From: Bacteroidales bacterium
Lineage (GTDB): Bacteria > Bacteroidota > Bacteroidia > Bacteroidales > UBA932
Assembly (NCBI GenBank): GCA_016286385.1
Contig: JAEESO010000007.1
Coordinates: 27,869-91,868 of the forward strand
Reading direction: 5' to 3'
DNA length: 64,000 nucleotides
Part shown: one piece after another, positions 1 to 64,000 of the stretch
Position numbering within the stretch: the stretch's first letter is position 1
Layout of the letters: each line of letters opens with the position of its first letter
Notes under the pieces: generated by a model
Database searches by the model: none
What the model saw: the letters and a program-made list of their open reading frames with translations, nothing else
Told to the model about the DNA's origin: nothing
Position numbers and translations under genes: made by a program

Positions 1-403
1 TATCTATGGCACTCTGCAGAAATGCGTAATCCTTGTCTTCCATGGCCGTGAGCATGCGCCTGAACAGATTTGCCATGAACACTGCGTCGTCAAACCAGAA
101 ACTCTGAAGATGGGGTTTGGAGGCACGGAGGACCGGATAGGAGGCGTCCTTGAGGAAACTCATTGAGAATGACCCCATATAGCCGTGGCAGCAGTTGTAG
201 TGCTTGAGAAGGATCCTCTTGCTTTCAGGGACTATGATAAGCTGCCCTGGGCCTATTAGGTAGTTCATCCCGTCAATATCGGCCAGGGCCTCTCCTTCCG
301 ACAGGAAGGCATATACATAGCGGTCCAGAATGTATCCGCTGATGTCTACAGGCTCCGTGTAGCCCTCAATCTTCAGTTCGTGAATTGTAATACCTGATTT
401 CAT
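1..403 (-). CDS. AraC-family transcriptional regulator, N-terminal part (cut by window edge)
   Basis: The reading frame opens with ATG at 403 and stays open to the window edge, giving 134 residues. The visible part has the beta-rich, cupin-like pattern of AraC-type sensor domains in Bacteroidales (a Y-L-I-G-P-G-Q-L-I-I-V-P strand-turn-strand near residues 49-60, then a segment rich in aromatic residues and helix). The helix-turn-helix that would prove the family lies beyond position 1, so the call is by similarity of the N-terminal domain only. The ATG lies one base downstream of the stop codon of the DUF5686 gene, so it is the distal gene of the lipid/envelope operon read leftwards from about 5266. 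Its target is unknown. Confidence 0.5.
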   Translation of the reverse strand, partial: MKSGITIHELKIEGYTEPVDISGYILDRYVYAFLSEGEALADIDGMNYLIGPGQLIIVPESKRILLKHYNCCHGYMGSFSMSFLKDASYPVLRASKPHLQSFWFDDAVFMANLFRRMLTAMEDKDYAFLQSAID

Positions 404-404
404 A

Positions 405-2888
405 CTAGAATTCTACATCCAGTCCTATATTAACTGTAAAGTTCTTTCCGTCTTCGCGGGGGTGTGTCACCCTCCAGTATGCGTCTACGCGTAGGATGCG
501 GAAGATGTTTGAGATGCCCACGCCAAGTTCCACGTAGGGGACTTCCAGTGTCTGGAGTTTCATGTTGTCCGGCACTATGAACATTCCGTGGTTGCGGTCG
601 TTGGCCTCAGTTAGAGTTCCCCATGCAAAACGGGCGGTCACAACTTCCCTGAGGTCAAGTTTTTTGAGGAGAGGAATCTTTCCAAGGAAGAATCCGTTGA
701 AATTGTGAACGTAATAACCGGTGAGCCAGCGGTCCGACGCAAACTCGAAGAAGTCCATACATGAGAAGGCCGATTTATCCAGGAAATACGACTGGTTGCC
801 CTCGTGGAGTTTGAGGAGGGTATAGGGGACCGATCCCCAGATGGCACCGCCCTGCAGCATGAATTTTCCAAATCCCACGGCCGTGGAAGGCACTTTCCAG
901 GTTATCTGGGCCTCTGTCTTGATGTATCCTATGTCTCCTTCGGTTATGCCCGGGATACCGCCGTAGACATCGAGTGTTATGACGGGGTATTTGGTGAAGA
1001 GGTAGTGCTTTAGGAAGTAGCCGCGGCTTACTCTCTCGTCAAAGGAGAAGCGGAGCTGCCCATGGACCTCGTTGGTTGAGTAGCTGTCCTGGATCTGGCC
1101 ATCCTCCCTCCTTATGTATTTCACAATGTCGTTGCCCCAGATGCGGGACTGGGTAAGTTGGAGGACGGAGTTAATCTCACGGCAGAATTCGTGGTCGTAG
1201 TGGATATCCAGGCTCCGGACCATATTGCGCTTGCTGCCGATGTCTTTGGCCAGGATGGAAGAGAAGACGTTGGGAACTGAAAACACTCCTGAACCGCTGC
1301 CAAACTGCTTGTAGTCATAGGTGGCGGTGACAAAGAGCTTGCGTGTCTTCTCCCTTCCAAGCATCCATTCAAGGGTGGCTTCGCCCTTTACTCCCTTGTC
1401 TCCGAATCCGTAGGCTACGTATCCTCCAAGGCGGAGTTTCTCATTCCATTCCTTGAGAGTGCGGCCCCCAAGCTGGAGCCGGAAGCCTTCCTGACCGGTG
1501 TAGGAGACTGTGCGGGCCCATCGGCCAAACTCAAATTTCCAGGGCTTTACTTCCACATAGTTGTTCACAAGGGTCCTTGCAACCCCGTACGTGCCCTTGT
1601 AAAGGTTCGTGCCCTGGAAGGTTTCCACCATCTCATAAATGCCCTGCTCCCTTTCAGTGAGCTCGTACGGGCGGGCATCGGCCCAATACTCCTCATCCCC
1701 GCCGGTGACGTCCCTCATCACCACAGCTTCCGTGGATGTGAGAGCGTCATGGTCTGTTATGGGGCCGATTTCCGGCACCTCATATTTCATGTTGCGGTTG
1801 GCAAGGAAGGAGACCAGCTTGGATTTATCGCTGACGCTGATGGAGAAATCAATGAACAGGTGCTCTTCATCGTAGAACCAGTGACCGCTGGGGAGGCGGC
1901 GGTTCACGATCTCAAAGTTGATGTGACGGATCCAGTTTACGTTGGAGGAAGGTGAGAGCTGGGCGTGGACGCTCCTTATGCCAAAATCCTCGGCATCAAA
2001 CTGCATCTCTCCGTCAAGTGTGGGGGATGTGACAAGGCTCTTGGGATGGAAGCGTAGGACGTACGTTTTTCGGCCTTCTACCTGCAGGCTGTCAACAAGG
2101 AAATAGTTGTAGAATATATGGGAGGACGCTGCTGCAGGGTTGGGGATTTCCAGGTTGAAAACGCCAATTGAAGGCTTGTAGAAGTTGGTCTTGAGGAGGT
2201 AGGAGCCCGTGAACTGGCGCACTACGTTGTCCTCTTCCAGGCCGGAAATACGGCTTGCGCGCATGACTTCCCTTATCCAGGACGGATTCTCCGAGTGGTA
2301 TACGTCAGAGACGTTTTCCGATATCATCACGGGGATGAAGGGCTTGCCAGTTATGGCCGATGTATCGGCATACTCCCTTATGAAGCCCACGTTCTTGTCC
2401 AGGACCTTGAGCTTCAGGAAATCCTCCATGTTGGTTACATCGAACTCTATCTTGGAGTAGAGGTGGGAACTCCAGTCAGGGCCGGCGTCCGGGTCATTCT
2501 TTGCAAGGGACTGGTCCAGCTTTTTGAGGACTGACTTGATATAGCGGTCGTCGGGCTTCACTATTGCTGCGTCCAGCTGGCGCTTGTCCGGGAGAAGGTG
2601 GAAGTTTATCTCAGAGAAGGCGCCCTTGTTCACCTCTATTGAAAGGGGCTCGTATCCAAGAAGCTGCGCCGTAAGGACCTTGGCGTCAGGGGAGCGCGTC
2701 TCTATGCTGAACCGCCCGTCCAAATCGGAGGTTATGCCGATGGTAGTGCCGTCAAAGTAGATTCCCACAAAAGGGAGAGGCTCTCCGGTTTCTGCATCAT
2801 ATACTCCGCCTCTTACACGCGTAGACTGTCCGGCTGCGTTAAATGCAGCCAGAAGCACTATGAGTGATATCAGAAGCCTCTTTATCAA
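405..2888 (-). CDS. DUF5686 outer-membrane protein with carboxypeptidase-regulatory-like domain
   Basis: An 827-residue protein with a signal peptide (residues 1-20, ending A-A-G-Q). A carboxypeptidase-regulatory-like beta-sandwich follows (about 25-105, with the G-x-V-x-D-x-x-T-G-E-P-L-P pattern common in Bacteroidota outer-membrane proteins), then a long DUF5686 region. The C-terminal third is rich in alternating aromatic strands and ends in F, as expected of an outer-membrane beta-barrel. The molecular function of DUF5686 is not known. The start is unusual: the only codon that keeps the complete signal peptide is TTG at 2888, which overlaps the TGA of the upstream SDR gene (TTGA). That argues for translational coupling. 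The downstream AraC-type gene starts one base after its stop. Confidence 0.8.
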   Translation of the reverse strand: MIKRLLISLIVLLAAFNAAGQSTRVRGGVYDAETGEPLPFVGIYFDGTTIGITSDLDGRFSIETRSPDAKVLTAQLLGYEPLSIEVNKGAFSEINFHLLPDKRQLDAAIVKPDDRYIKSVLKKLDQSLAKNDPDAGPDWSSHLYSKIEFDVTNMEDFLKLKVLDKNVGFIREYADTSAITGKPFIPVMISENVSDVYHSENPSWIREVMRASRISGLEEDNVVRQFTGSYLLKTNFYKPSIGVFNLEIPNPAAASSHIFYNYFLVDSLQVEGRKTYVLRFHPKSLVTSPTLDGEMQFDAEDFGIRSVHAQLSPSSNVNWIRHINFEIVNRRLPSGHWFYDEEHLFIDFSISVSDKSKLVSFLANRNMKYEVPEIGPITDHDALTSTEAVVMRDVTGGDEEYWADARPYELTEREQGIYEMVETFQGTNLYKGTYGVARTLVNNYVEVKPWKFEFGRWARTVSYTGQEGFRLQLGGRTLKEWNEKLRLGGYVAYGFGDKGVKGEATLEWMLGREKTRKLFVTATYDYKQFGSGSGVFSVPNVFSSILAKDIGSKRNMVRSLDIHYDHEFCREINSVLQLTQSRIWGNDIVKYIRREDGQIQDSYSTNEVHGQLRFSFDERVSRGYFLKHYLFTKYPVITLDVYGGIPGITEGDIGYIKTEAQITWKVPSTAVGFGKFMLQGGAIWGSVPYTLLKLHEGNQSYFLDKSAFSCMDFFEFASDRWLTGYYVHNFNGFFLGKIPLLKKLDLREVVTARFAWGTLTEANDRNHGMFIVPDNMKLQTLEVPYVELGVGISNIFRILRVDAYWRVTHPREDGKNFTVNIGLDVEF

Positions 2889-3679
2889 GAATACAGGGCG
2901 TTTATGAGAGAGAGTTTCCAGCTTTCGGGCAGAATCCGTGCCAGAAGGCCCACGGCCTTGTAATCCAGGCGGGGGATTACCCTTACTGCCATCTTTTTGC
3001 GTTTGAGTTGCTTAAGGATAGCCTTTGCTATTACCTCCGGCTTCATGCCGCCAAGCTCATCCTTCTCAATCTTGCGGAGGTTTTTCCTCAGGCTTTCATC
3101 ATACGGAGTGCCTTCTGAGGCATTGACTTTCCTGGCCTGGGTGAATCCGGTTGCAACGTCTCCGGGGAGGATGCTGCAGCATTGGATGCCTGTGCCTTTG
3201 AGTTCCATCCTGAGGCCTTCTGTAAGTGAAAGCATTGCCGCTTTGGCCGATGAATAGAAGACCTGGAAGGGGAGCTGGAGCACGGCCATTACGGACGTAA
3301 CCGTGATGATGCGCCCGTGGCCCTGCTTACGGAACACGGGAAGGCAGGCCTGGATGGTCTTGAGGGCACCAAAGTAGCAGGTCTCGAACTGAGCCCTGGC
3401 GTCTTCCTCCGTGGTGTACTCTACCGGGCCATAGATGCCGTTTCCTGCGTTGCAGATGACGGCATCTAGCCGGCCATCGGCCTCAAGTATCTGATCAACA
3501 GCTGCCTTGAGGGTGGCGGCGTCATTGACGTCCAGTTTTATGGGAACTATGCCGGGATGGGCCTCTGTGGCCGTTCCGCGCCTTGAGCCGGCATAGACTT
3601 TCATGCCTGCATTGGCCAAAACCTTTGCCGTTTCCGCGCCAATTCCACTGCTGCCGCCGGTGATGAGTACTATTTCCAT
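2885..3679 (-). CDS. short-chain dehydrogenase/reductase (SDR)
   Basis: A 264-residue classical SDR oxidoreductase using NAD(P). The cofactor motif T-G-G-S-S-G-I-G lies at residues 7-14 and N-A-G at 77-79. The catalytic serine is near 129 and the Y-S-S-A-K (YxxxK) pair at 142-146. The substrate cannot be read from sequence. Its neighbours are an acyltransferase and a CDP-alcohol phosphatidyltransferase, so a lipid or acyl-chain carbonyl substrate is a reasonable inference. The gene overlaps the acyltransferase gene by 10 bases at its start and the DUF5686 gene at its stop, so it is internal to one operon. Confidence 0.85.
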   Translation of the reverse strand: MEIVLITGGSSGIGAETAKVLANAGMKVYAGSRRGTATEAHPGIVPIKLDVNDAATLKAAVDQILEADGRLDAVICNAGNGIYGPVEYTTEEDARAQFETCYFGALKTIQACLPVFRKQGHGRIITVTSVMAVLQLPFQVFYSSAKAAMLSLTEGLRMELKGTGIQCCSILPGDVATGFTQARKVNASEGTPYDESLRKNLRKIEKDELGGMKPEVIAKAILKQLKRKKMAVRVIPRLDYKAVGLLARILPESWKLSLINALYS

Positions 3680-9650: not shown

Positions 9651-11003
9651 ATGAAAAAGACCTTTGCTTTAGCGCTGATGCTGCTTTCCATAGCGGCATT
9701 GGCCCAAAACAAGGCCGGAGGCATTTCGGCCGATATCTTGAAAGACCTTAACGCCTCATTCGAAGGCAATGCCGCCGACAAAGCCATCAGAAACGCCCTC
9801 AACAACACGTCTATGGCGGTGCTGGCAGCATCGGCCGATAAATCCGTGATGCCTGACACTGACTTCTCGGATGAAGTCAAGACCAAGGGCCGCACGGACC
9901 AGAAATCTTCCGGAAGGTGCTGGCTTTTCACCGGCCTCAATGTCCTTAGGGCCCAGATGATTGCCCGTCACAATCTGGATGAATTCACATTCTCACAGAA
10001 TTACCTCTTCTTCTATGACCAGCTGGAAAAGTCAAATCTTTTCCTCCAGGGCGTCATAGATACCCGTAAGCTTACCATGGAAGACCGCAAGGTAGACTGG
10101 CTGTTCTCCCATCCCATTGGTGACGGCGGCCAGTTCACGGGTGTGAGCAACCTTATCATGAAGTACGGCGTTGTGCCCTCTGAGGCTATGCCTGAGTCTT
10201 ATTCGGCCAACAATACATCGGCCATGCGCACCCAGTTAAGCCTTATCCTCAGGGAAGGCGGCCTCAAACTCCGCGCAGCAAAGGATAAGGATGTCCAGGC
10301 CCTCAAGCTGAGCATCCTGAAGGATGTTTACCGCGTCCTTGCCCTCTGCCTTGGCGTCCCTCCCAAGGAATTTACCTGGAGAAAAGACGGCAAAACCTAC
10401 ACCCCGCAGGAATTCTATCGGCAGTATCTTGGACAGGACCTTGAGAACAACTACGTGATGGTGATGAACAATCCCACCCTGGAGTACGGCAAGGTGTACG
10501 AGATAGACTATGACCGCCACGTCTATGACGGACAGAACTGGGTCTACGTGAACCTCCCCATGGACCGCATCAAGGAAATGGCCATCGCCTCCATCAAGGA
10601 CAACACCGCACTCTATTTCTCCTGTGACGTAGGGAAATTCCTGGACAGGAACAAAGGTGTGGCCGATATTGAAAACTTCGACTACCAGTCCCTCCTTGGC
10701 GTGAATTACGGCATGGATAAGTGTGACCGGATCCTTACTCACGCCAGCGGCTCCACCCACGCCATGACCCTCATTGCCGTGGATATCAAGGACGGAAAGC
10801 CTGTCAAATGGATGGTGGAAAACAGCTGGGGAGAGGCCAGCGGCTACAAGGGTAATATCATCATGACGGACGAATGGTTCGATAACTACATGTTCCGCCT
10901 TGTGGTAGAAAAAAAGTACGTCCCCGGGGACGTACTCTCGATGATGTCTCAGAAGCCGGTCCTTCTGCCGGCATGGGATCCTATGTTTGCGCCTGAAGAG
11001 TAG
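9651..11003 (+). CDS. C1B-family cysteine aminopeptidase (bleomycin hydrolase/PepC-like), exported
   Basis: A 450-residue protein with a signal peptide (residues 1-19, cut after A-L-A-Q). The papain-type triad is visible: C90 in S-G-R-C-W-L-F, a histidine near 370 in G-S-T-H-A-M-T, and an asparagine near 393 in E-N-S-W-G. This is the C1B family, which trims N-terminal residues from peptides; the signal peptide suggests it works in the periplasm. It starts one base after the kbl stop, so peptide and threonine catabolism are linked. Its 3' end faces the next gene across 8 bases, and a 9-pair imperfect stem (10995-11003 with 11015-11023) covers the end of this gene and the tail of the opposing one. 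Confidence 0.85.
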   Translation: MKKTFALALMLLSIAALAQNKAGGISADILKDLNASFEGNAADKAIRNALNNTSMAVLAASADKSVMPDTDFSDEVKTKGRTDQKSSGRCWLFTGLNVLRAQMIARHNLDEFTFSQNYLFFYDQLEKSNLFLQGVIDTRKLTMEDRKVDWLFSHPIGDGGQFTGVSNLIMKYGVVPSEAMPESYSANNTSAMRTQLSLILREGGLKLRAAKDKDVQALKLSILKDVYRVLALCLGVPPKEFTWRKDGKTYTPQEFYRQYLGQDLENNYVMVMNNPTLEYGKVYEIDYDRHVYDGQNWVYVNLPMDRIKEMAIASIKDNTALYFSCDVGKFLDRNKGVADIENFDYQSLLGVNYGMDKCDRILTHASGSTHAMTLIAVDIKDGKPVKWMVENSWGEASGYKGNIIMTDEWFDNYMFRLVVEKKYVPGDVLSMMSQKPVLLPAWDPMFAPEE

Positions 11004-25899: not shown

Positions 25900-28872
25900 A
25901 TGCTGAAGATTCTCAAGGCGTCGGCGGGTTCCGGCAAAACATACAATCTGGCAAAAGAGTACATAAGACTGATTGTCATGAGCAATCAGCCGGATGCATA
26001 CAGGCATGTCCTGGCTGTGACTTTTACCAATAAGGCTACGGACGAGATGAAGCGCCGCATACTGAAGGAACTCCATACCCTGTCCAAGGCTCCGGATGAG
26101 TCAAAGTATCTGGATTACCTCACAAAGGAAACAGGCCTTGATAAGACATCCCTTCAGAAACGTGCCCAGTCTCAGCTCTCGGGCATCCTTCATGATTATT
26201 CCGCCTTTGCAGTCTCTACCATAGACCGCTTTTTCCAGCAGACTCTCCGCGCTTTTTCAAGGGAGATAGGCCAGTTCTCCTCCTATCAGGTTCAGCTGGA
26301 CCGTGATGAACTGGTTCAAGAGAGCGTGGACAGGGTACTTGACAGCATATCAGAGGAAGACGAAGCCGTCCTTGACTGGCTCACTGAAAGTGCAAAATGG
26401 GACCTTCAGCAGAAGGGCTGGTTTTCAATAGAGGGAAGGCTCAGGGATATGGCCGCCAGCCTTGGAAAACTCCAGGAAGAAAAGCGCCGTCTCTTCTCAC
26501 GAGACAAACTCCAGGAGGTAGGGAAGGCCTGCCGTGAAGTGAAAGGTGCCTGGGAGACGCGTGTAAGGGAATCGGCCCGGAAGGTAATTGACATGGTGGC
26601 AGCCTGCGGCCTCACAACGGACGATTTCAACAGGAAGTTCCTCACCGTCATCTATAATTACAAGGATGCAGGAAAGGAGATAAAGAAGCCCACGGATGCT
26701 TTTACACGCAAGGCTCTGAACCCTGACGAGTGGTTCAGCAAGGCAAACGCCGGAAAGTTCATGCCCATGGTCCGGGGCATGCTGGAAGGCCCTCTGGAAG
26801 AGTTTATCGGCCTTTTTGATGCACCATACAGGGTGTTCCGCACGGCCGACCTTATCTCCAGGCAGATTTATTCCCTTGGGATGGCTTCTGAGCTGGCCGA
26901 TGCCTTCCAGGATATCCAGAAGGAGAAAAACGTCATTTCCATAGATGATTCCAACACCATCCTCAGGAACATCATAGACGGTACAGACACGCCTTTCATA
27001 TATGAGAAACTGGGCGTGAGGTTTGAAGATTTCCTCCTTGATGAGTTCCAGGACACTTCCGACGTCCAGTGGGATAATTTCCGTCCTCTGCTTCATGGGA
27101 GCATCGACGAAGGCCATGATTCCCTGGTGGTGGGAGACGTAAAGCAAAGCATCTACCGCTGGAGAGGAAGCGACTGGGACCTCCTTGGAACACGCCTTGA
27201 GCAGGAATTCTCAAATCCCAACATTAATCCTCTGAAGGAAAACTGGCGCACCTGCAGGGAGATTGTCAATTTCAACAACGAGTTTTTTGAATTTGCGGCA
27301 GGGCAGCTTGGCGTTCAGGACCTTTATGCCGATGTAGAGCAGATCCCCAGGTTTCATGACCCTTCCCCGGGCAGCGTTGACGTAGTGTTTACGGATGATG
27401 AAATGGGGGAGATATTCTCAACGCTAGAGACCCTCAGGAATGCTCATGCAAAATGGGCCGATATAGCCATCCTGGTGCGGGGAAACGATGACGGCGCGGC
27501 CATTGCCTCTGAACTGGTGGCAAGGAATATCCCCGTGGTCTCAGATGATTCCCTGTACGTGAAAGCATCGGCCACTGTAAGGCGCCTTGTGTCTCAACTA
27601 TCCCTTGTGGATACCCCCCATGATGAAGAAAAGCCGTCCGTGGCCGGCTTCCTGGCCTCTTCCCTTGGTATAAACATTCCGGAGCGCTACCATTCCCTCA
27701 CAGACCTTGCCGAATCCCTCCTTAGGGATATATCGGCCGCAAAACCGGATGTTTTCAAGGCGGAAATCCCTTACATCCAGTCCTTCATGGATTACCTTCA
27801 GGACTGGGTGAGCCAGAACGGCAACAACCTTTCCGCCTTCCTGCGGGCCTGGGCCGGGGCGGATCCCAAGATTGCATCCCCGCAGTCAGGAGACTCCGTG
27901 CGCATAATGACGGTCCATAAGTCCAAAGGCCTGGAATTTCCCTATGTGATTTTCCCGTTCGCGGAAAAGGTGAACCTGTATAAGCATTCGTCCTACTGGT
28001 GCAGCCCGGAGACGGAGGGAACTCCGCTTGAGGGCAGGGCCGATGGAAATTATTATGTAGACCTTACTGATTCCACGGCCGATACACTGTTCAGGTCCAA
28101 TTATGAGGAGGAACGCCGCAGACAGACCATAGACAACATAAACATATTCTATGTGGCCCTGACAAGGCCCATTTACGGACTTAAGGTGATTGCGGCAAAT
28201 CCGCCCGCTAATATGTCTGAGCCCAAGAATCTGTCCCAGGTCCTCTATCTTTTTACTGAGGGCCAGGTCTTAAGCCGAGGAGAGCTACGGGACTTCTCCA
28301 CCATAAAGAGAGAGGAAAGTGCCTCCAGTGTCATTGAAACCGGTTATCCGTCATTTCCTGCAAGCAGCGGAGACCGCCTTAAGTTCTCTCCGGAAGCAGC
28401 CGATTACTTTGGGGAGGATGGGTCTTATGGCCCTGAAGCCAGCCGCAGAATTAGGGGCAATGTCCTTCACGGCATCCTTTCAAGGGTTGTAGTGGCCCAT
28501 GACCTTCCGGCTGCCGTTGATGCCGCAGTCCTGTCCGGCGAATTGCCCTCAAGCAGCAGGGATGAGGCTCTCAGTTTCCTTGAGGCCAGAATTTCCTCCG
28601 TCAGTGACAGGGGATGGTTCTCCCCGGAGGTGAAAGTCAGATCCGAAGAATCCGTCCTTGTACCTGGAGAGGGGGAGTATCGGCCCGACAGAGTGGTTAT
28701 CCATCCCGGCGGCAAGGTGGACATAGTGGATTTCAAGTTTGGAAAGGAGGAGTCAAAATACCTCTCCCAGGTGCGCCGGTACGTTAACCTTTACCGCCGC
28801 ATGGGATTTGAAAAAGTTGACGGATACCTTTGGTATTTGGACGATAATTTAATTAACTTTGTAGCTGATTAA
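25900..28872 (+). CDS. addA: AddA-type UvrD/Rep helicase with C-terminal PD-(D/E)XK nuclease
   Basis: A 990-residue protein with Walker A (A-S-A-G-S-G-K-T, 7-14), motif II D-E-F-Q-D near 377-381, a Q-S-I-Y-R-W-R-G motif, and a motif V/VI region near M-T-V-H-K-S-K-G-L-E (about 670-679). The C-terminus carries a RecB-type nuclease (D-I-V-D-F-K). It fits AddA, the helicase-nuclease that resects double-strand breaks until Chi. The AddB partner is encoded separately at 46083. A TATATTTG box (25886-25893) ends 6 bases before ATG 25900. Confidence 0.85.
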   Translation: MLKILKASAGSGKTYNLAKEYIRLIVMSNQPDAYRHVLAVTFTNKATDEMKRRILKELHTLSKAPDESKYLDYLTKETGLDKTSLQKRAQSQLSGILHDYSAFAVSTIDRFFQQTLRAFSREIGQFSSYQVQLDRDELVQESVDRVLDSISEEDEAVLDWLTESAKWDLQQKGWFSIEGRLRDMAASLGKLQEEKRRLFSRDKLQEVGKACREVKGAWETRVRESARKVIDMVAACGLTTDDFNRKFLTVIYNYKDAGKEIKKPTDAFTRKALNPDEWFSKANAGKFMPMVRGMLEGPLEEFIGLFDAPYRVFRTADLISRQIYSLGMASELADAFQDIQKEKNVISIDDSNTILRNIIDGTDTPFIYEKLGVRFEDFLLDEFQDTSDVQWDNFRPLLHGSIDEGHDSLVVGDVKQSIYRWRGSDWDLLGTRLEQEFSNPNINPLKENWRTCREIVNFNNEFFEFAAGQLGVQDLYADVEQIPRFHDPSPGSVDVVFTDDEMGEIFSTLETLRNAHAKWADIAILVRGNDDGAAIASELVARNIPVVSDDSLYVKASATVRRLVSQLSLVDTPHDEEKPSVAGFLASSLGINIPERYHSLTDLAESLLRDISAAKPDVFKAEIPYIQSFMDYLQDWVSQNGNNLSAFLRAWAGADPKIASPQSGDSVRIMTVHKSKGLEFPYVIFPFAEKVNLYKHSSYWCSPETEGTPLEGRADGNYYVDLTDSTADTLFRSNYEEERRRQTIDNINIFYVALTRPIYGLKVIAANPPANMSEPKNLSQVLYLFTEGQVLSRGELRDFSTIKREESASSVIETGYPSFPASSGDRLKFSPEAADYFGEDGSYGPEASRRIRGNVLHGILSRVVVAHDLPAAVDAAVLSGELPSSSRDEALSFLEARISSVSDRGWFSPEVKVRSEESVLVPGEGEYRPDRVVIHPGGKVDIVDFKFGKEESKYLSQVRRYVNLYRRMGFEKVDGYLWYLDDNLINFVAD
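28854..28861 (+). promoter_or_regulatory. internal -7 box before the DUF4290-ftsK-lolA genes
   Basis: TAACTTTG lies inside the last codons of addA, 24 bases before ATG 28886. It would allow ftsK to be expressed independently of addA. Confidence 0.45.
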
Positions 28873-33493: not shown

Positions 33494-34513
33494 ATGCTAT
33501 ATAATTTGAGAAAAGTCCTGTCCATACTGGGTGCCATGCTGGCCATAATCTCCTGCGGTGAACGTGGCCGATATGTCCAGATTACGGGCGTTGCCCAGTC
33601 TGTGAATTACTCCGTAAAGTTCAATATAAACGGGGTCGATGTGCCTGTGGACCAGATAAGGGACAGTGTGGATGCAATCCTCTCAAATATTGATTACTCC
33701 CTTTCCGGGTATAACAAGGAGTCCCTCCTGTCACGTTTCAATGCCGGAGAAGTTATCAGGCCCAATGACCTTTTCATTGAGATGTACGGCATTGGATACA
33801 ACATGTGGGAACGCTCCGGGGGCGCCGTGGACTGTGCCGCCGGCCCTCTTTTCGATTCCTGGGGATTCGGCTTCCGCAGCAGTTCTTTCCCAACGGATGA
33901 GGAAATCTCCGCGCTCCTTGGAAAAATCGGCCAGAAAAATCTCCCTAAAGAGCTTCCAATTGCCCCTGACGGCACTTTGGATCCCGCATCCATGGGTAAT
34001 CCCAAACTCAATTACAATGCAATTGCGCAGGGCTATACCTCAGATGTGATTGCCCGCTATCTCTATAGTCTTGGTGTGAAGGACATGCTTGTTGACATCG
34101 GAGAAATCTGGTGCGACGGCCTCAATCCCTCAGGTGAGCCTTGGGCTGTTGGAGTAGACCGTCCTTCTGGGGAAGAGCTTAAGGATGTCTGGACATCGGA
34201 GGGGAAACCTGCCGGAATCACTACTTCAGGCAACTACCGCAAATTCTTTGTCCGTGACGGGAAGAAGTACTCCCACACCATCAATCCTGTCACCGGATAC
34301 CCCGTAGAGCACAGTCTTCTAAGTGCAACGGTAGTATCCAAGGTGAGTTCAGCAGAGTCCGATGCCATAGCCACCTGGTGCATGGTGGTTGGGCTTGAGA
34401 AGGCTCAGGAGATAATTCTTGGGGATTCCCGGCTTGAAGGATATCTTACTTATGCCGATGAAAACGGTGATACGAAAGAATGGATGTCTCCGGGATTCCG
34501 GCTCAGGAACTGA
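33494..34513 (+). CDS. apbE: FAD:protein FMN transferase lipoprotein
   Basis: A 339-residue ApbE-type protein with a lipoprotein signal (I-I-S-C). Family features include A-Q-G-Y near 178-181, G-E-I-W near 200 and the H-T-I-N-P-x-T-G-Y-P motif near 261-270. It attaches FMN covalently to threonine of periplasmic or membrane flavoproteins such as the Na+-pumping NADH dehydrogenase or the Rnf complex. It overlaps the convergent comEC-like gene by 11 bases. Confidence 0.9.
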   Translation: MLYNLRKVLSILGAMLAIISCGERGRYVQITGVAQSVNYSVKFNINGVDVPVDQIRDSVDAILSNIDYSLSGYNKESLLSRFNAGEVIRPNDLFIEMYGIGYNMWERSGGAVDCAAGPLFDSWGFGFRSSSFPTDEEISALLGKIGQKNLPKELPIAPDGTLDPASMGNPKLNYNAIAQGYTSDVIARYLYSLGVKDMLVDIGEIWCDGLNPSGEPWAVGVDRPSGEELKDVWTSEGKPAGITTSGNYRKFFVRDGKKYSHTINPVTGYPVEHSLLSATVVSKVSSAESDAIATWCMVVGLEKAQEIILGDSRLEGYLTYADENGDTKEWMSPGFRLRN

Positions 34514-35573
34514 TTACGGTTAAAACCCATACAAGCAGGCGGCTCAGGCCGTCTGTTATTGTTATAAGCATGCCCGGACACCATCCAAGGCCGGAGAGGG
34601 CTATGGTTATGACGGCAACCCACATGAGCACAGTCACTATAGGTATGGCCATTAGGTTGGTAAGGAGGAAGTGCCTGGGGAAAGTGCCGAACTTGATCCA
34701 GGCAAGGGGGCCGGTGAAGAGTTGGCAGGAGATTGCGATGGCGGCCATCTGCCAGATTCTCCGTATGGGGTTGAATCTGGAGCCTTCAGGGTACCACTTT
34801 TCAAGGACCGGGTAAAGGAGCACAATTCCAGCCATGGCAAGGTATGAGAGCTGGAATCCAAGGCTCCGTATGACGCCGGGATTGATCACGAGCTGGATAA
34901 GAAGTGCAAGGCACAGCACCCTGGAAGGCTTCCGGCGCCTTCCGGAGAGGGTGCATATCTCTCCAATAAGAATAAAGAGGAATGCCCTGACTATTGACGG
35001 TCCGGCTCCGGTCATGATCGTGAACCAGGCGGCAGCAGTAACCACGATGATTGCCCTGGCCCATTTTGCCGCCCGGGATTTGCCAAGGGGCAGGGTGAGC
35101 TTGTCAAATATAAGGTACAGTATGCCCATATGCAGCCCTGAGAGGGCCAGGATATGGGATGCCCCGCTACCCCTGAACGCCTGGACGGTTTCCCGGCTGA
35201 GGCCGCTTTTATCTCCTGTGAGAAGGGCCGTGAGAAGGGGAGAGGTTACATCGGCCTTGAAAGGGATGCGGGAAATGAGAGCCTTCAACTTAAGGGCCGA
35301 TTCCAGGGCTATGCCCTCCAGGAAAGAGCCTTCTCCATGAAATGGAATGGCCGATGCCGATACGAATACTCCAAGAGAGAGGAAAGCAAGCAGGAGGATG
35401 GGAGGACCGGCCTTGATGCGGCGAAGCGCCGGGCCGCAGAAAACGGGGACTGAGACTATTGGAAGGAGGATTGCAGGAAGGATCCACGGCGAGTTCTGGG
35501 AAACAACCGCCCCCACTGCCACTCCCGCTGTGAACATTACCGACAGCGCCTCTATGCTTTTCGCCTCAGCCAT
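34503..35573 (-). CDS. comEC: ComEC/Rec2-family membrane protein, short form
   Basis: A 356-residue protein with about eight to ten hydrophobic helices and the hallmark G-A-S-H-I-L-A-L-S-G-L-H near residues 140-151, which defines the ComEC channel domain. Both the N-terminal DUF4131 region of full-length ComEC and the C-terminal metallo-beta-lactamase domain are missing or very reduced. It would carry single-stranded DNA into the cell in natural transformation, if active. I use ATG 35573; a TTG at 35588 is also possible. The end overlaps the convergent apbE gene by 11 bases. Confidence 0.8.
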   Translation of the reverse strand: MAEAKSIEALSVMFTAGVAVGAVVSQNSPWILPAILLPIVSVPVFCGPALRRIKAGPPILLLAFLSLGVFVSASAIPFHGEGSFLEGIALESALKLKALISRIPFKADVTSPLLTALLTGDKSGLSRETVQAFRGSGASHILALSGLHMGILYLIFDKLTLPLGKSRAAKWARAIIVVTAAAWFTIMTGAGPSIVRAFLFILIGEICTLSGRRRKPSRVLCLALLIQLVINPGVIRSLGFQLSYLAMAGIVLLYPVLEKWYPEGSRFNPIRRIWQMAAIAISCQLFTGPLAWIKFGTFPRHFLLTNLMAIPIVTVLMWVAVITIALSGLGWCPGMLITITDGLSRLLVWVLTVISS

Positions 35574-35596
35574 ATGCGAAATTAGCAATTATTTCG

Positions 35597-46082: not shown

Positions 46083-48845
46083 GTGGATCCGTTCCTCAGG
46101 CAGGTGGCCTTACACTACTATGAAGGCCATCATATAGAGCAAACCTGCTTTGTTTTCCCTAACCGCCGTTCCCTGGTGTTTTTCCGTAAATACCTTGGAG
46201 GCCTGGTTAGGGAAAGGCCTCTTCTGGCGCCTCAGATGTATACCATCAACGATTTCTTCTACAGGGTATATGATGTCCACGCCACAGATAAGCTTCACCT
46301 GCTTCTGGAACTGTATGACTGCTACAAGGCCCTTAATCCGGAGGCGGAGCCTCTTGATGAGTTCATGTTTTGGGGAGACGTTATCCTCAGTGACTTTGAC
46401 GACATTGACAAATACCTTGTAGATGCCCGCGGGCTCTTCCGTAATGTCTCCGATTTCAAGGAGATCCAGGATACATATGAGTATCTTACGGAGAATCAGG
46501 AAGAGGCAATTGTGCATTTCCTGTCTCATTTCAAAGACTCAAGGCAGCTTGAAAGGGGAGTGAAGGGAAAGTTCGTAAAACTCTGGAACATTCTCTTCCC
46601 GCTATATGAGAGTTTTGGGAAACGCCTCAGGGAGAAAGGCATGGCCTATGAGGGGATGGTATACCGTTCGGTGGCTTCAGGGCTTAAGGATGGAGCATCG
46701 GTCAAGGACCTCCTGGAGCCTGTTTTTCCGGACACTCAGAAGTATGTCTTTGTGGGTCTGAATGCTCTCAATGAGTGTGAGAAGCTGCTCCTGAGGAGAA
46801 TGCGGGATGCACGTCTGGCCGATTTCTGCTGGGATTATGTGAGCTCAATGATCAGGGACAGGGACAACAAGTCCTCTTTCTTCATGAAAAAGAACGTGGA
46901 GGAGTTCCCTCAGGCATTTGAGACAGATTCGGCCGGCTTGGCGGTGCCAAGTATTACCGTGGTTGACGTCCCGTCTTCCGTAGGGCAGGCAAAGCTTGCC
47001 CCATGGATACTTGGTCAGACTTCCGGTGACAGCGTAGAGACTGCTTTTGTGCTTCCTGACGAGTCCCTTCTTCTTCCGCTTCTGAATTCCATCCCTCCGT
47101 CATTTGACTCTATCAATGTGACCATGGGATATCCCATGTCGGGAAGTGCCGTGTATACGCTTCTGGATGCCCTGGGTTCAATGCAGCTGAGGCTGAGGAA
47201 GCGGCCGGACGGCTGGTATTTCTACCATGCCGCAGTGAGGGAAGTGTTTGCCTCGGGCCTTTTCCGTGAACTTCTTGGAGAGGATGAGATAAGTAAGGTG
47301 GAAGCCGTGAAAGCGGCAGCAAAATACTATATCCCTCTGAAGGACCTTCAGGGCTGCCCTGTGCTTGATGTCATCTTCCGTCCGGTGATTGAAGATGTCA
47401 CGGTGGCATCGGCCATGCAGAACCACCGCACGGAGGAGTATTTCTCTGAGGTTATCGGCCTTGTTGGGCGCACCCTTACCGGAAAATCCCAGATGCTTCT
47501 TGAACTGGATTTTGCAAAGCGCTGCCATACTGAGTTGAATATCTTGAAAGGGACAGACCTTGATGTGCTTCCCGCTACGCATATGAGGGTTATGCAAAGG
47601 CTTCTTCAGGGCATTTCCGTGCCGTTCAGGGGAGAGCCTCTGAAGGGCCTTCAGATCATGGGGCCCCTTGAAACCCGTGCCCTGGACTTCAAGTATCTTG
47701 TGGTCCTGAGCGCCAATGAAGGCATGTTCCCAAGGCACAGCGTCAGTTCCTCATTCATTCCGCCGGAACTCCGCAAAGGCTTCGGCCTGCCTACGTATGA
47801 GTCCCAGGATGCCGTGTGGGCCTATTATTTCTATAGGATGATTCAGCGCCCGGAGCATGTGTGGCTTGTGTATGACAGCCGTACTGAAGGCCTTAAGTCC
47901 GGGGAGGAGAGCAGGTATATCAAGCAGCTTGAGTATCATTTTGGCGTGAAACTGGAAAGGCTAACCGCCGCCCCTCCCATGGAGGCCCCAAGGCCGGAGG
48001 AAGAGTTAGTAAAGACTCAGGAAGATGTGGATGCCATCAGGGAAAAACTTTTGTCGGCATCGGCAATCAATAATTATGCGGAATGCCCGGCAAAGTTCTA
48101 CTACCAGGCCGTGAAGGGGCTTAAAACTGACGATGAAGTTGCAGAATCCCTTGATTCACGGATGCTTGGTAACGTCTTCCATCATGTCATGGAGGATCTC
48201 TACGGCAGAGCTCCTGTCATAACCAGGGAAATGATAGAATCCTTCAGGAAGGACGTGAAGGGCCTTAAGGCGCTTATCCGGCAGAAGGTGCTGGATGAGA
48301 TGCATTCCATAGAGGTGACTGGCCGAAACCTTGTCCTGGAGGAAGTAATCCTGGACTACGTGCTGTCTACCCTTGGGCATGATGCTGCCCTCCTTGCTGC
48401 TTCTGACGGAACTGAAGGGTTCAGGATTATCGGCCTTGAAAAGCATCTGTATGGCAGTTTTGGCGGATTCAAGTTCCACGGTTACATAGACAGGCTGGAT
48501 AGTTACAGGGAAGGAGAAGTGCGCGTTGTGGACTACAAGACAGGTAAGGTGGAGGATGGGGACGGTGGTCCAAAGATTGCCATGCAGCTGTTCATCTATA
48601 ATTTGCTCTGCCATCAGGAGCGTTCCCTTGCCGGAAAACAACTGGTGGATTCCATCTACTCAATTCGTCATATGTACACCGGGAATCTCCCGGAAATGCC
48701 TGAGGATCCTGAAGTGACAAAAGAAATGACAGCAAAGCTTGAGACTATGCTGTCTGATATTGCCAATCTTGATATTCCATGGAGCCGCACGGAAGACAGG
48801 AACATCTGTTCCAGATGCGATTTCAAGGATATCTGCGGACGCTAG
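46083..48845 (+). CDS. addB: AddB-type PD-(D/E)XK nuclease, inactive-helicase subunit
   Basis: A 920-residue protein starting with GTG. The N-terminal region resembles a helicase without a good Walker A. The C-terminal nuclease has V-V-D-Y-K-T-G near 817-823. Cysteines in Y-A-E-C-P near 666 and in C-S-R-C-D-F-K-D-I-C at the very end form the split 4Fe-4S cluster typical of AddB. With AddA (25900) it should form the Chi-regulated resection enzyme. It is unusual that the two genes are 20 kb apart in different operons. The end overlaps the Hsp15-like gene by four bases. Confidence 0.82.
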   Translation: MDPFLRQVALHYYEGHHIEQTCFVFPNRRSLVFFRKYLGGLVRERPLLAPQMYTINDFFYRVYDVHATDKLHLLLELYDCYKALNPEAEPLDEFMFWGDVILSDFDDIDKYLVDARGLFRNVSDFKEIQDTYEYLTENQEEAIVHFLSHFKDSRQLERGVKGKFVKLWNILFPLYESFGKRLREKGMAYEGMVYRSVASGLKDGASVKDLLEPVFPDTQKYVFVGLNALNECEKLLLRRMRDARLADFCWDYVSSMIRDRDNKSSFFMKKNVEEFPQAFETDSAGLAVPSITVVDVPSSVGQAKLAPWILGQTSGDSVETAFVLPDESLLLPLLNSIPPSFDSINVTMGYPMSGSAVYTLLDALGSMQLRLRKRPDGWYFYHAAVREVFASGLFRELLGEDEISKVEAVKAAAKYYIPLKDLQGCPVLDVIFRPVIEDVTVASAMQNHRTEEYFSEVIGLVGRTLTGKSQMLLELDFAKRCHTELNILKGTDLDVLPATHMRVMQRLLQGISVPFRGEPLKGLQIMGPLETRALDFKYLVVLSANEGMFPRHSVSSSFIPPELRKGFGLPTYESQDAVWAYYFYRMIQRPEHVWLVYDSRTEGLKSGEESRYIKQLEYHFGVKLERLTAAPPMEAPRPEEELVKTQEDVDAIREKLLSASAINNYAECPAKFYYQAVKGLKTDDEVAESLDSRMLGNVFHHVMEDLYGRAPVITREMIESFRKDVKGLKALIRQKVLDEMHSIEVTGRNLVLEEVILDYVLSTLGHDAALLAASDGTEGFRIIGLEKHLYGSFGGFKFHGYIDRLDSYREGEVRVVDYKTGKVEDGDGGPKIAMQLFIYNLLCHQERSLAGKQLVDSIYSIRHMYTGNLPEMPEDPEVTKEMTAKLETMLSDIANLDIPWSRTEDRNICSRCDFKDICGR

Positions 48846-54902: not shown

Positions 54903-55155
54903 AAGGGACCGTAGAAAGATCCCGGCCCCTTTGGAAGCGCAACTGTTACGTTGACCGATCATGTCCACGACATACAGATATTGCGGCGCAAATGTATGGC
55001 CGATAGACCTGACTGACAAGAAATGGCGTGAATGGATTGTCTCTCGGCAGTTGATTCATTATCAGGAACTTATGATGCCGTGGTGGATAAGTTGAATACA
55101 AAAAATGCCCCTGGGATATTTCCAGGGGCATTTTTGTGTAGGAAAAAAATCGGCT
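54903..55155. other. 253-base intergenic stretch
   Basis: No gene is supported. After the rlmI stop a weak GGG/CCC stem (54905-54932) could end that transcript. The middle part contains one ATCGGCC-type heptamer (54998-55004). The right end carries the bidirectional terminator at 55098-55137. Confidence 0.5.
55098..55137. terminator. bidirectional terminator
   Basis: A 10-pair GC-rich stem (A-T-G-C-C-C-C-T-G-G with 55122-55131), extended by A/T pairs to T-runs on both sides. It ends the leftward small-lipoprotein gene and can also stop readthrough from rlmI. Confidence 0.8.
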
Positions 55156-59793: not shown

Positions 59794-59797
59794 TAGC

Positions 59798-61432
59798 ATG
59801 CGCTACAAAAAAAACATACTGTATTATTCTCTGGCCATTGTTGTCACGGCCGCTGCATTATACGCATTTACCTCTGTAGGGGAGCCAAAGGATCCGCTGC
59901 CATCAGAGTGGAATATGACCACACTCGCACAGGCCTATATGTATTTCAGCGACAGCCGTGACGTCATGACGGATTTCAGCGGCAAAAAATCGGCCGATAT
60001 CCCCCCGCGGAAACTTGTTGCAAAAGGCTCCAATATGAAGGTACTGGGCTTTGTGGAAGATGATTTCGCCCTATGGGTGGAACATCCTGACGGAGACCGC
60101 GGCTGGATGAAGATGTCGGATTTCAGCCATGAGTTTATTCTGGCCGACAAAGAGCGGTTTCAGACGGCCAAAAAGGATTCCACAATAAAGTTCAAGGCCG
60201 GTGCGACATTCACCTACAAGGGGGTGGACAGCAAAGAAAAGGATATCCTTCTTATAGAGAATGACCTTGGCGTGTTCAGACTGAGCCGCCGCAAGGACCT
60301 TGTGATAAAAGAGGTCATGAACGACGGTCACTGGAAGTATTGTGTCAATGGTTCCCGCCGGTCTGTCAGGACCAAGGCAGGGTTTGAGGAACTTGTCATG
60401 GGAAAGGACCTTGCTACGGTGGAGGCTTCTCTGAACACTCCGGCGCAGATGGTCCGGAATATCGGCAAAAATAACTGTAAAGCCACATTCAACGTGTGGG
60501 TTTACTGCATCAACATGGTCAAGGACAAAAAGAAGGCCCAGTACATGAGGCCCGTCCTCACTCTTGAGAACGGCGCAGTCACAGGAGTTGAATATGAATT
60601 CAGGCACGGCGCCCGTCCTTGGCTCAGATATGTCCCTCTATGGAGATTTGTGGCCGATAAACTTTCCTGCCTCACAGAGGACACTATTTACAATTCCTTC
60701 AACTGTTTTTACTATCCGGCGCTTACACGGGGGCGCAATCTTGACTTTGTAATCTGGCTGCTGATACCTTTTGTCCTCCTTGGGTGGCTGGTGTACAATC
60801 TGGCAACTCCTCTTCTGCCATTCTTTGTCCTTATGATTCTTCTGCAGCGTCCGTGGCCGTTCAAACCTCTGGGAAACACTTTTGTCAATATCAGTTTTAC
60901 AGTCATTGCGCTTGCCTGCTGTTATATATGGCTCATAGCTCTTATGATTATGAACTGGGGCCTTATTATAGCACTGCCCATTATGCTGCCCCTCATCGGC
61001 CTTGTGGGCTCTTTCGAGATGGTAGCCAGAACCGTAGAGTACCGCTGCCCTCAGTGCAAGTATATAGATACCTATGTCTTCAGCCACAGGGAATGGCTGG
61101 AAGAGTATCAGGACAGGCGTGACGAGGTCCGGCCAGAATACCTTGGCAGTGAGGTTGTGCGCTCATGGAAAACCTGGACCCATCACTGGGGTCAGGATGA
61201 ATATGGCAATAAGTACAGCTATGACACCGACAAAAAGACACACGAGGAAGTCGAGACCACCTGGAGAAACCATCGGTACGGAGTCCTGTACCGCATAAGG
61301 CCATACCGTGACTGGGAAAAGTGCCAACGCTGTGGCAAAATGCGTTATACCTACGGTGAGGTGCGGGAAGAATTGAACCGTGAATATAAAGGGTCCACTA
61401 TTTCAACAGATTCCAGCGTAAACACTTACTGA
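59798..61432 (+). CDS. membrane protein of unknown function with SH3-like domains and split zinc ribbon
   Basis: A 544-residue protein. It has an N-terminal helix (about 5-24), two SH3-like beta segments (about 63-105 and 120-160), then a predicted globular part, and about four helices (about 305-415). A C-terminal domain follows, with C-P-Q-C near 421-424 and C-Q-R-C near 509-512, which could bind zinc although 85 residues apart. The region between is rich in Trp, Tyr and charged residues. No named family is recognised. Confidence 0.55.
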   Translation: MRYKKNILYYSLAIVVTAAALYAFTSVGEPKDPLPSEWNMTTLAQAYMYFSDSRDVMTDFSGKKSADIPPRKLVAKGSNMKVLGFVEDDFALWVEHPDGDRGWMKMSDFSHEFILADKERFQTAKKDSTIKFKAGATFTYKGVDSKEKDILLIENDLGVFRLSRRKDLVIKEVMNDGHWKYCVNGSRRSVRTKAGFEELVMGKDLATVEASLNTPAQMVRNIGKNNCKATFNVWVYCINMVKDKKKAQYMRPVLTLENGAVTGVEYEFRHGARPWLRYVPLWRFVADKLSCLTEDTIYNSFNCFYYPALTRGRNLDFVIWLLIPFVLLGWLVYNLATPLLPFFVLMILLQRPWPFKPLGNTFVNISFTVIALACCYIWLIALMIMNWGLIIALPIMLPLIGLVGSFEMVARTVEYRCPQCKYIDTYVFSHREWLEEYQDRRDEVRPEYLGSEVVRSWKTWTHHWGQDEYGNKYSYDTDKKTHEEVETTWRNHRYGVLYRIRPYRDWEKCQRCGKMRYTYGEVREELNREYKGSTISTDSSVNTY

Positions 61433-63800: not shown

Positions 63801-63890
63801 CCCGCGGAACAACAATGGCCCTTTTTGTGTCTCCAGCTGCTCTCCAGACCGTCCCGCGGAACAAAAATGGCCGTTTTTGTGTCCCCAGCT
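63801..63890 (+). repeat. 52-base-period tandem repeat
   Basis: Units 63801-63838 and 63853-63890 agree in 35 of 38 bases. Each contains CCCGCGGAAC, an AATGGCC core and TTTTTGTG. The second unit can fold into ACAAAAA/TTTTTGT hairpins, so the units may also act as terminators of tex. Confidence 0.7.
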
Positions 63891-63970
63891 TGTCTTTCCC
63901 TGAAAAAAGTTGACTCGCAAACACGAGTTAACAATGTTTATTTATCGAACAACACTAAGGGATCAGTATT

Positions 63971-64000
63971 ATGAAAAAGCAATCGACTTGTATTATAAGG
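63971..64000 (+). CDS. start of a possible gene, cut by window edge
   Basis: An ATG at 63971 followed by ten open codons (M-K-K-Q-S-T-C-I-I-R). The K-K start is signal-peptide-like but too short to judge. An inverted repeat ACTCG/CGAGT (about 63912-63928) lies upstream. Confidence 0.3.
   Translation, partial: MKKQSTCIIR

What the first reader, a model, noticed from the sequence alone, without database searches (positions are those of the whole stretch)
1..64000. Heptamer ATCGGCC/GGCCGAT occurs about 113 times, roughly 13-fold above chance
A hand scan found 55 ATCGGCC and 58 GGCCGAT on the plus strand. Base composition predicts about 9 in total. Spacing averages about 570 bases across the whole window, in genes of both strands and in at least one intergenic site (54998). 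In genes it is read in different frames (Ser-Ala, Ile-Gly, Ala-Asp), so codon bias alone is a poor explanation. Two sites are the 10-base palindrome ATCGGCCGAT (9830-9839, 59988-59997). The near-equal orientation argues against a strongly polar KOPS-type signal. Candidates are a DNA uptake sequence, a Chi-like site for the AddAB enzyme encoded here, a nucleoid-protein site, or a HIP1-like methylation-linked repeat. No uptake sequence is established for Bacteroidota as far as I know.
Basis: partly seen in the sequence, partly recalled or inferred. Interest (0 to 1): 0.85.

Follow-up and report, generated by a model that had tools for sequence, protein, structure and literature searches.

The report
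Genome-wide ATCGGCC tag with dialects
An uncultured Bacteroidales bacterium carries the seven-letter DNA word ATCGGCC about 3,900 times, roughly seven times more in the sampled genes than its codon use predicts, and a close relative favours TTCGGCC, in part at the very same places, so the word is likely a self-tag read by a DNA-handling protein that remains to be found.

Summary
The window has 115 copies (55 ATCGGCC, 60 GGCCGAT) against 8.7 expected from composition; the genome has 3,900 against 298 for the reversed word. Codon shuffling predicts 80 copies in the sampled genes, and 598 are there. The excess is on both strands and between genes, without polarity and with random gaps. Sites are conserved above background in four of six motif-rich relatives (two not significantly). 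The strongest result is new: the relative UBA4230 favours TTCGGCC (3,128 copies against 1,702 ATCGGCC), and where TCGGCC is kept, A-to-T occurred at 10 of 25 sites against 11 of 567 background sites. This dialect switch points to a factor that reads the sequence. In most of the clade TCG is depleted outside the motif. Known pilus uptake machinery, three methylase families and the MmeI-type enzyme found do not fit; polarity and AddB distribution argue against Chi. Best guess: a self-DNA tag working like Neisseria uptake-sequence dialects, with an unknown receptor (0.35). Rivals are a HIP1-like repair- or modification-linked repeat and an unpolarised Chi. My literature searches found no report of it.

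The parts
1..64000 (.). 115 copies of the heptamer; start positions on the + strand, + = ATCGGCC, - = GGCCGAT: 278+ 768- 1520+ 1677+ 1763- 2355- 3245- 3476+ 3795- 4018+ 5642+ 5667+ 5750- 6781+ 8623- 9728- 9830+ 9833- 10217+ 10661- 11350- 12465- 13866- 13966+ 14130- 14406- 15293+ 15440+ 15722+ 16372- 16388+ 16928- 17123- 17846+ 18194- 18527- 18653+ 19052- 20142+ 20370+ 20734+ 22108+ 22123- 22606+ 22632- 22691- 22849+ 23313- 24491- 25329+ 25615+ 26571+ 26806+ 26895- 27456- 27567+ 27732+ 28038- 28077- 28679+ 29700+ 30204+ 30876- 31242- 32758- 33223- 33566- 33926+ 35250+ 35295- 35349- 35753+ 38423- 38534- 40160+ 40373+ 40574- 41824- 42355- 43609+ 44551+ 45723- 46817- 47408+ 47454+ 48429+ 49377+ 49854- 50052+ 50414- 50821- 52479+ 52985+ 53837- 53990+ 54998- 55270- 55611- 56198- 58233+ 58407- 58580+ 59060- 59228+ 59321- 59989+ 59992- 60652- 60995+ 61798- 62038- 62185+ 62506- 62933+ 63605+
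   Evidence: exact scan
9830..9839 (.). ATCGGCCGAT, two overlapping copies in opposite orientation
59989..59998 (.).
54998..55004 (-). copy between ORFs of at least 250 aa (one ends at 54902, the next begins at 55671)
25900..28872 (+). AddA-like helicase (UvrD helicase domains), candidate partner if the motif is Chi-like
   Evidence: Pfam; naming it AddA is an inference from the domains and the AddB-like gene at 46083
46083..48845 (+). AddB-like protein (PD-(D/E)XK nuclease domain), candidate reader if the motif is Chi-like
   Evidence: Pfam; relatives in 295 of 300 genus genomes; naming it AddB is an inference
34503..35588 (-). ComEC N-terminal-domain protein (361 aa), candidate inner-membrane channel if the motif is an uptake tag
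   Evidence: NCBIfam TIGR00360

Best explanation
ATCGGCC is a genome-wide DNA tag whose excess, conservation and dialect switch are shown here, and it likely works like the DNA uptake sequences of Neisseria: an unidentified receptor would prefer DNA carrying the tag, and recombination of that DNA would spread and keep the tag. Shown: the word is far above codon-preserving expectation in genes, in both orientations, and above Markov expectation between genes; core positions 2 to 6 (TCGGC) are strict in the window's genome while positions 1 (A or T) and 7 (C, less often A) vary between lineages; sites are conserved above background in four of six relatives; UBA4230 has shifted to TTCGGCC, at 10 of 55 aligned sites in place of ATCGGCC; spacing is random and unpolarised. 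Inferred: that a protein reads it, that the accumulation is driven by biased uptake and recombination and not by another form of selection, and that the receptor is not a type IV pilin, because no T2SS/type IV pilus ATPase above the family cut-off was found in 20 motif-rich genomes.
For: Excess: 598 in genes against 80 by codon shuffle; xxA TCG GCC frame 186 against 6.7; top 7-mer among all 7-mers by that test. Strictly intergenic DNA: 34 in 26.2 kb against 3.0, 3.5 and 5.5 by order-1, -2 and -3 models (the order-1 figure printed was an integer overflow and was recomputed). Specificity: of the 21 single-base variants only ATCGGCA is clearly raised (248 against 82, 3.0x); AACGGCC, ACCGGCC, TTCGGCC and ATGGGCC are at 1.3 to 1.6x, the rest at 1.1x or less. 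Conservation: 58/80, 46/65, 49/76, 34/58, 14/27 and 11/24 sites kept in six motif-rich relatives against GC-matched 7-mer backgrounds of 0.50, 0.445, 0.415, 0.38, 0.35 and 0.32; the first four have p of 0.002 or less, the last two 0.10 and 0.19; in UBA4230 12/55 against 0.28. Dialect: UBA4230 whole genome TTCGGCC 3128 (reversed control 582) and ATCGGCC 1702 (217); the window's genome has 771 and 3900; A-to-T at motif position 1 in 10 of 25 sites that keep TCGGCC, background 11 of 567, Fisher 6.6e-10. Other dialects: both A and T in G286, CATCGGC followed by A or C in G120. Orientation: sense 310 and antisense 288 in genes, heterogeneity chi2 9.4 on 20 df. Precedents: eight Neisseriaceae DUS dialects share an invariant 3-base core (PMC3630211, passages seen); Riemerella columbina, of the Bacteroidota, prefers its own DNA in transformation (PMC7965970, section 16 read). 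ComEC-like gene at 34503-35588.
Against: No competence is known here and no receptor was found. T2SSE (PF00437) is over the cut-off in 0 of 20 motif-rich genomes and 5 of 20 motif-poor ones, so the known Neisseria/Haemophilus-type machinery seems absent. DUS genomes have many inverted pairs at terminators (PMC3630211, passages); here there are 18 overlapping palindromes and no excess of other close pairs in 444 kb, apart from three near-identical intergenic inverted pairs. The excess (about 7x for a 7-mer) is small beside known DUS (recalled). Integrase-bearing stretches still carry the motif: 25 copies in 33.4 kb, genic O/E 2.5 to 5, so a clear self/foreign contrast was not seen. ComEC-region matches also occur in motif-poor relatives, so ComEC does not discriminate. 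The depletion of TCG outside the motif is not explained by uptake.
Confidence: 0.35

Rival explanations
1. HIP1-like repeat: the motif is the footprint of a DNA modification or mismatch-repair process centred on the TCG core. Repair or modification would favour mutations that complete the motif, while cytosines of TCG elsewhere decay to TTG or TCA.
For: Density of about 1480 per Mb in the window's genome (3900 in 2.64 Mb) lies in the HIP range of about 500 to 2500 per Mb (PMC4390886, passages); deviations from HIP1 are also greatest at the outer positions (section 13) and the author proposes a repair ratchet (section 18 part 1). TCG outside the motif is 0.45, 0.51 and 0.53 of expectation in G000, UBA4230 and G019 and 0.99 in motif-poor G016+G144; Spearman -0.79 with WTCGGCC O/E over 49 loci, which share ancestry. 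Where motif-poor relatives have TCG the window keeps 14.8%, against 25 to 33% for ACG, CCG and GCG, mainly through TTG and TCA.
Against: The word is not palindromic. Matches at E <= 0.001 in 20 motif-rich and 20 motif-poor genomes: PF01555 6 and 11, PF00145 11 and 9, PF02384 5 and 13; G019, G235, G265 and G347 have none of the three. These searches catch MmeI-type enzymes only weakly and other methylase families were not searched. The MmeI-type enzymes of G000, G231 and G123 carry the pairs K-D, E-R and E-R that specify a last base G or C, not the T of GGCCGAT. Gaps are exponential, not evened out as a distance-limited repair signal would give. Motif-rich G123 has near-normal TCG, 0.91, and G286 0.88; motif-poor G186 has 0.82.
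Confidence: 0.25
2. Chi-like site: AddAB, encoded in the window, recognises ATCGGCC as single-stranded DNA and switches from degradation to recombination, so the chromosome is selected to carry many copies.
For: Short non-palindromic word, AddA-like and AddB-like genes in the window, over-representation of the order of or above E. coli Chi (O/E 2.29 in PMC3784561, passages; other models than mine).
Against: No polarity: 351 against 338 by GC-skew sign of the stretch, heterogeneity p 0.98, whereas Chi is usually leading-strand biased (recalled). AddB is found in 295 of 300 genus genomes and in 118 of 118 of high quality, including genomes such as G016, G144, G013 and G041 in which no comparable word stands out in the sampled 50 to 69 kb of coding DNA.
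Confidence: 0.2
3. Binding site of a nucleoid, chromosome-structure or other DNA-binding protein whose many sites are selected genome-wide.
For: Dense, unpolarised and present in all 19 further stretches of the genome, 0.25 to 2.38 per kb; the dialect switch fits a change in any DNA-binding protein.
Against: Nearly all-or-none recognition of seven bases is unusual for a nucleoid protein (recalled); no candidate protein was found.
Confidence: 0.15
4. Side effect of codon usage, codon pairs, composition or assembly.
For: Some other words rise 2 to 3 fold by the same codon shuffle. CATCGAC, top word of two clades by Markov model, was mostly explained by codons.
Against: 598 against 80 after codon shuffling; five of six frame/strand classes exceed every one of the 200 shuffles (3.5x to 28x), the sixth (5 against 2.5, maximum 7) does not; intergenic excess; present in assemblies named RUG, RGIG and UBA; site-specific dialect switch.
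Confidence: 0.02

Closest known systems
DNA uptake sequence (DUS) dialects of Neisseriaceae, and the uptake signal sequence of Pasteurellaceae
   Same: Non-palindromic short word in great excess, both orientations, clade-limited dialects with an invariant core and changing outer bases (PMC3630211, passages; Pasteurellaceae recalled).
   Different: Seven bases instead of 9 to 12, no excess of inverted terminator pairs, no type IV pilus ATPase in the motif-rich genomes searched, no known competence, different phylum.
HIP1 and other highly iterated palindromes of cyanobacteria
   Same: Similar density, variants at outer positions, present in some lineages and not in others (PMC4390886).
   Different: Not palindromic; no methylase of the three families searched goes with it; random gaps.
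Chi sites of RecBCD and AddAB
   Same: Short asymmetric word in excess; AddA-like and AddB-like genes in the window.
   Different: No polarity, dialect switch between close relatives, excess absent in AddB-bearing relatives.
MmeI-family (type IIL) restriction-modification enzymes
   Same: Read 6 to 8 base asymmetric words (PMC4081073, passages) with the methylated A second from the end (recalled in part), a form that GGCCGAT and GGCCGAA share.
   Different: The three enzymes found have specificity residues for a final G or C, and such systems usually lead to avoidance, not excess (recalled).

Membership tests
DNA uptake sequence (DUS/USS) | Genome-wide excess of a specific short word in both orientations | tested here: met
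DNA uptake sequence (DUS/USS) | Dialects in related species around an invariant core | tested here: met
DNA uptake sequence (DUS/USS) | Type IV pilus uptake machinery (receptor pilin) | tested here: not met
   PF00437 over cut-off in 0 of 20 motif-rich genomes; pilins themselves not searched
DNA uptake sequence (DUS/USS) | Inverted pairs at terminators (Neisseria type) | tested here: not met
   three near-identical intergenic inverted pairs are the exception
DNA uptake sequence (DUS/USS) | Preferential uptake or transformation of tagged DNA | not testable with these tools
   needs a culture
Chi site of AddAB/RecBCD | Enzyme encoded in the genome | tested here: met
Chi site of AddAB/RecBCD | Orientation bias along the replichore (usual, not universal; recalled) | tested here: not met
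   the assembly is in contigs, so by stretch and GC skew only
Chi site of AddAB/RecBCD | Attenuates the nuclease and stimulates recombination | not testable with these tools
   biochemistry needed
HIP (highly iterated palindrome) | Palindrome | tested here: not met
   the word ATCGGCC itself; 81 palindromes ATCGGCCGAT take up 162 of 3,900 occurrences
HIP (highly iterated palindrome) | Co-occurrence with a methylase for an internal site | tested here: inconclusive
   not met for three Pfam families; other families not searched
HIP (highly iterated palindrome) | Density of about 500 to 2500 per Mb | tested here: met
   about 1480 per Mb; range
Target of an MmeI-family enzyme | Specificity residues match the last base of the word | tested here: not met
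   K-D in G000, E-R in G231 and G123 at positions 806/808

The most novel reading that the evidence does not exclude
A clade of uncultured Bacteroidales writes a self-recognition tag, A/T-TCGGC-C/A, across its genomes and changes its dialect site by site as species diverge: the first uptake-type dialect system outside Neisseriaceae and Pasteurellaceae, working without type IV pili and accompanied by purging of the tag's TCG core from the rest of the genome.
Probability: 0.3. Interest if true: 0.9.

Novelty: new variant of a known kind. Interest (0 to 1): 0.74.

Why it matters
Genome-wide iterated words of this strength are known in few lineages (recalled), and each marks a major DNA process (uptake, recombination or repair).

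Tried and rejected
CATCGAC/GTCGATG looked like another dialect in L066-69, L071, L077 and in L079-81 by Markov model; codon shuffling gave 117 against 74 (L066-69, L071) and 64 against 42 (L079-81), so it was dropped. G036 looked enriched by the reversed-word control, but codon shuffling gave 13 against 13.7: that control is crude in GC-rich genomes. Current hypermutability of TCG: its loss rate between close relatives (0.181) is like that of ACG, CCG and GCG (0.185 to 0.221), so the depletion is older or near equilibrium. A Vsr-type mutational origin was not supported: the states found in relatives at motif sites are spread over all seven positions. Attempt to polarise gains on the window's branch: 0 gains and 4 losses under a strict rule, too few to use. 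Five trios gave motif loss rates of 0.174, 0.209, 0.111, 0.000 and 0.263 against control rates of 0.260, 0.322, 0.365, 0.230 and 0.372, on few and overlapping sites, suggestive only. The MmeI-family lead was tested by its specificity residues and rejected. Integrase regions as foreign DNA were inconclusive. Literature: one search found 0 papers; one search found 97 papers that hold the letters ATCGGCC, of which 15 were listed (titles and starts of abstracts seen, none on this); the listings show no report of this motif; only an open-licence library was searched.
Full report
OBSERVATION. The window holds 55 ATCGGCC and 60 GGCCGAT, 115 in all, against 8.7 by base composition and 19.6 by an order-3 Markov model. 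The genome in which it lies (G000, 2.64 Mb in 78 contigs) holds 1916 + 1984 copies and 147 + 151 of the word read backwards. All 19 further stretches of that genome carry it, 0.25 to 2.38 per kb.

NOT CODON USE. Genes were called by an ORF and codon-likelihood script in 20 stretches (444 kb, 281 genes, 82% coding) and synonymous codons were shuffled within genes 200 times: 598 observed, mean 80.2, maximum 101. Sense frame 2 (xxA TCG GCC) has 186 against 6.7 and antisense frame 2 (Ala-Asp) 256 against 34.9; the weakest class has 5 against 2.5, within the shuffles. Of 739 TCG codons 186 lie in the motif. Of all 7-mers ATCGGCC ranks first by this test. In strictly intergenic DNA there are 34 copies in 26.2 kb against 3.0 to 5.5 expected by order-1 to order-3 models (the order-1 figure printed was an overflow error). 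The genic ratio is 6.4 to 8.2 in all five GC classes of genes.

SHAPE. Positions 1 to 6 are sharp in G000; at position 7 ATCGGCA is raised 3.0x; four other single-base variants are at 1.3 to 1.6x and the rest at 1.1x or less. Orientation is balanced by stretch (heterogeneity chi2 9.4 on 20 df), by GC-skew sign (351 against 338) and by gene strand (310 against 288). Gaps between copies follow an exponential law (sd/mean 1.06, n = 669) apart from 18 overlapping palindromes ATCGGCCGAT, so neither regular spacing nor an excess of stem-loop pairs is seen; 5-kb bins are somewhat overdispersed (variance/mean 1.6) and follow GC.

DISTRIBUTION. Among 300 genomes of its genus, G000 included, the whole-genome count runs from 18 (G175) to 4066 (G169). 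G316 of this genus has the same counts for two words and their controls as the genome of Candidatus Cryptobacteroides fimicaballi reached through L084, so the genus is probably Cryptobacteroides; the titles of the nearest named records speak of rumen, reticulum or RUG/UBA assemblies. On an FtsK tree of 54 rows the motif-rich label (38 rows by my O/E threshold; 11 poor, 5 ungrouped) needs three changes, against 10.2 in shuffles: an old trait of a clade. In another clade of 10 rows, 8 are poor (L066, L067, L068, L069, L071, L077, L079, L086) and two stand in between (L080 14/8, L081 13/6). Matches to the window's ComEC region are listed for L066, L068, L077, L080 and L081 of that clade among the three longest matches shown for each. 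AddB is in 295 of 300 genomes and in 118 of 118 of high quality.

DIALECTS. UBA4230 (L044, 80% DNA identity to the window) has TTCGGCC as its top word, genome-wide 3128 TTCGGCC (control 582) against 1702 ATCGGCC (control 217), where G000 has 771 and 3900. By codon shuffle over 16 pieces UBA4230 has TTCGGCC 317/58, ATCGGCC 169/41, TTCGGCA 152/52 and ATCGGCA 82/38. Of 55 aligned G000 motif sites 12 are unchanged and 10 read TTCGGCC; among the 25 of them that keep TCGGCC, A-to-T is 10, against 11 of 567 at comparable 7-mers (Fisher 6.6e-10). G286 uses A and T alike (64/17.9 and 72/24.6); G120 prefers CATCGGC with A or C after it; G123 adds words around GGCATCG. Of 24 genome or clade samples, ATCGGCC (in UBA4230 TTCGGCC) ranks first in 11 and ATCGGCC second in 2 (G120, G156); it does not lead in G121 (2 kb of coding sample only), G036, G211 (ATCGGCC 3/4.3, ATCGGCA 17/5.8) and 8 motif-poor samples. 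In the poor G013, G016, G041, G067, G144 and G186 the top words are TCCGGA-like or others at 2.2 to 4.4 fold.

CONSERVATION. Six motif-rich relatives keep 58/80, 46/65, 49/76, 34/58, 14/27 and 11/24 of the aligned G000 sites; GC-matched backgrounds are 0.50, 0.445, 0.415, 0.38, 0.35 and 0.32 (p = 5e-5, 3e-5, 6e-5, 0.002, 0.10, 0.19). The relatives are not independent of each other. In a smaller set TCG codons inside the motif are kept 26/26 at 82 to 85% identity against 36/65 outside it; at 87 to 89% it is 24/26 against 37/56; the other four codons of the motif show smaller, mixed or no differences.

TCG DEPLETION. Outside the motif TCG is at 0.45 of the codon-shuffle expectation in G000, 0.51 in UBA4230, 0.53 in G019 and 0.99 in motif-poor G016+G144; in the three rich genomes it is low for every flanking base. 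Over 49 loci WTCGGCC O/E and TCG O/E outside it correlate at -0.79 (the loci share ancestry). The depletion is on both strands and in short intergenic DNA (0.64); where motif-poor relatives have TCG the window keeps 14.8%, with TTG 17.7% and TCA 15.8% as main replacements. G123 (0.91) and G286 (0.88) are motif-rich with little depletion, and motif-poor G186 has 0.82. I cannot explain this; any mechanism should.

MECHANISM. A dialect switch at homologous sites by a transversion that is otherwise rare means that something recognises the word and that single sites are gained or kept because of it; mutation bias alone would hardly do this (inference). For 20 motif-rich and 20 motif-poor genomes chosen by me from the counts: PF01555 6 and 11 with a match at E <= 0.001, PF00145 11 and 9, PF02384 5 and 13, so none of these methylase families tracks the motif. 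G000 encodes an MmeI-family enzyme (L251:1435-4218; Pfam MmeI domains; PDB 5hr4, E 5.9e-203) and a type ISP enzyme (L250:1238-4279). In MmeI, E806-R808 gives a final C and K806-D808 a final G (PMC4833311 and PMC4081073, passages); G000 has K-D and G231 and G123 have E-R, so none should read GGCCGAT. T2SSE is above its cut-off in 0 of 20 rich genomes, which removes the known DUS machinery; but Riemerella, of the Bacteroidota, transforms with partly unknown proteins (PMC8459023, abstract and section 20) and R. columbina prefers its own DNA (PMC7965970, section 16). I therefore commit to an uptake-type self-tag with an unknown reader at 0.35, a HIP1-like repair- or modification-linked repeat at 0.25, an unpolarised Chi at 0.2 and another DNA-binding protein at 0.15.

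Noticed in passing
L251:1435-4218 (G000) and L252:1309-4092 (G231): MmeI-family genes beside the same transporter gene, 500/510 identical in the first 510 residues but 148/330 in residues 511-840 (rest of the methylase and recognition domain): a swap of specificity between close relatives.
   Followed up: partly
L250:1238-4279 (G000): Type ISP restriction-modification protein of 1013 aa (Type_ISP_C domain); the next ORF looks HNH-like by eye.
   Followed up: no
genome-wide, most of the motif-rich clade: TCG/CGA trinucleotides are well below codon-shuffle expectation (about half in G000, UBA4230 and G019), with TTG and TCA as the main replacements.
   Followed up: partly
L056 (RUG13987), L045, L046, L091: GATC is strongly avoided (O/E 0.02 in L056, 0.18 to 0.25 in the others), possibly a lineage-specific restriction effect.
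   Followed up: no
L006:8146, L007:15995, L018:12605 (all G000): Three near-identical intergenic inverted pairs GGCCGATT...AATCGGCC-like, 30 bases apart, in otherwise similar sequence: a small dispersed repeat that carries two motif copies.
   Followed up: no
L003:1-9043 (G000:C5:40001-49043): Longest motif-free stretch seen, 9 kb, in a stretch of lower GC with large genes; no annotation was made.
   Followed up: no
several genus genomes, e.g. G000, G013, G016, G067, G186: TCCGGA-type words are 2.5 to 3.4 fold above codon-shuffle expectation in motif-rich and motif-poor genomes alike.
   Followed up: no
window 34503-35588, - strand: ComEC-like protein of only 361 aa, matching the ComEC N-terminal-domain model.
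   Followed up: no
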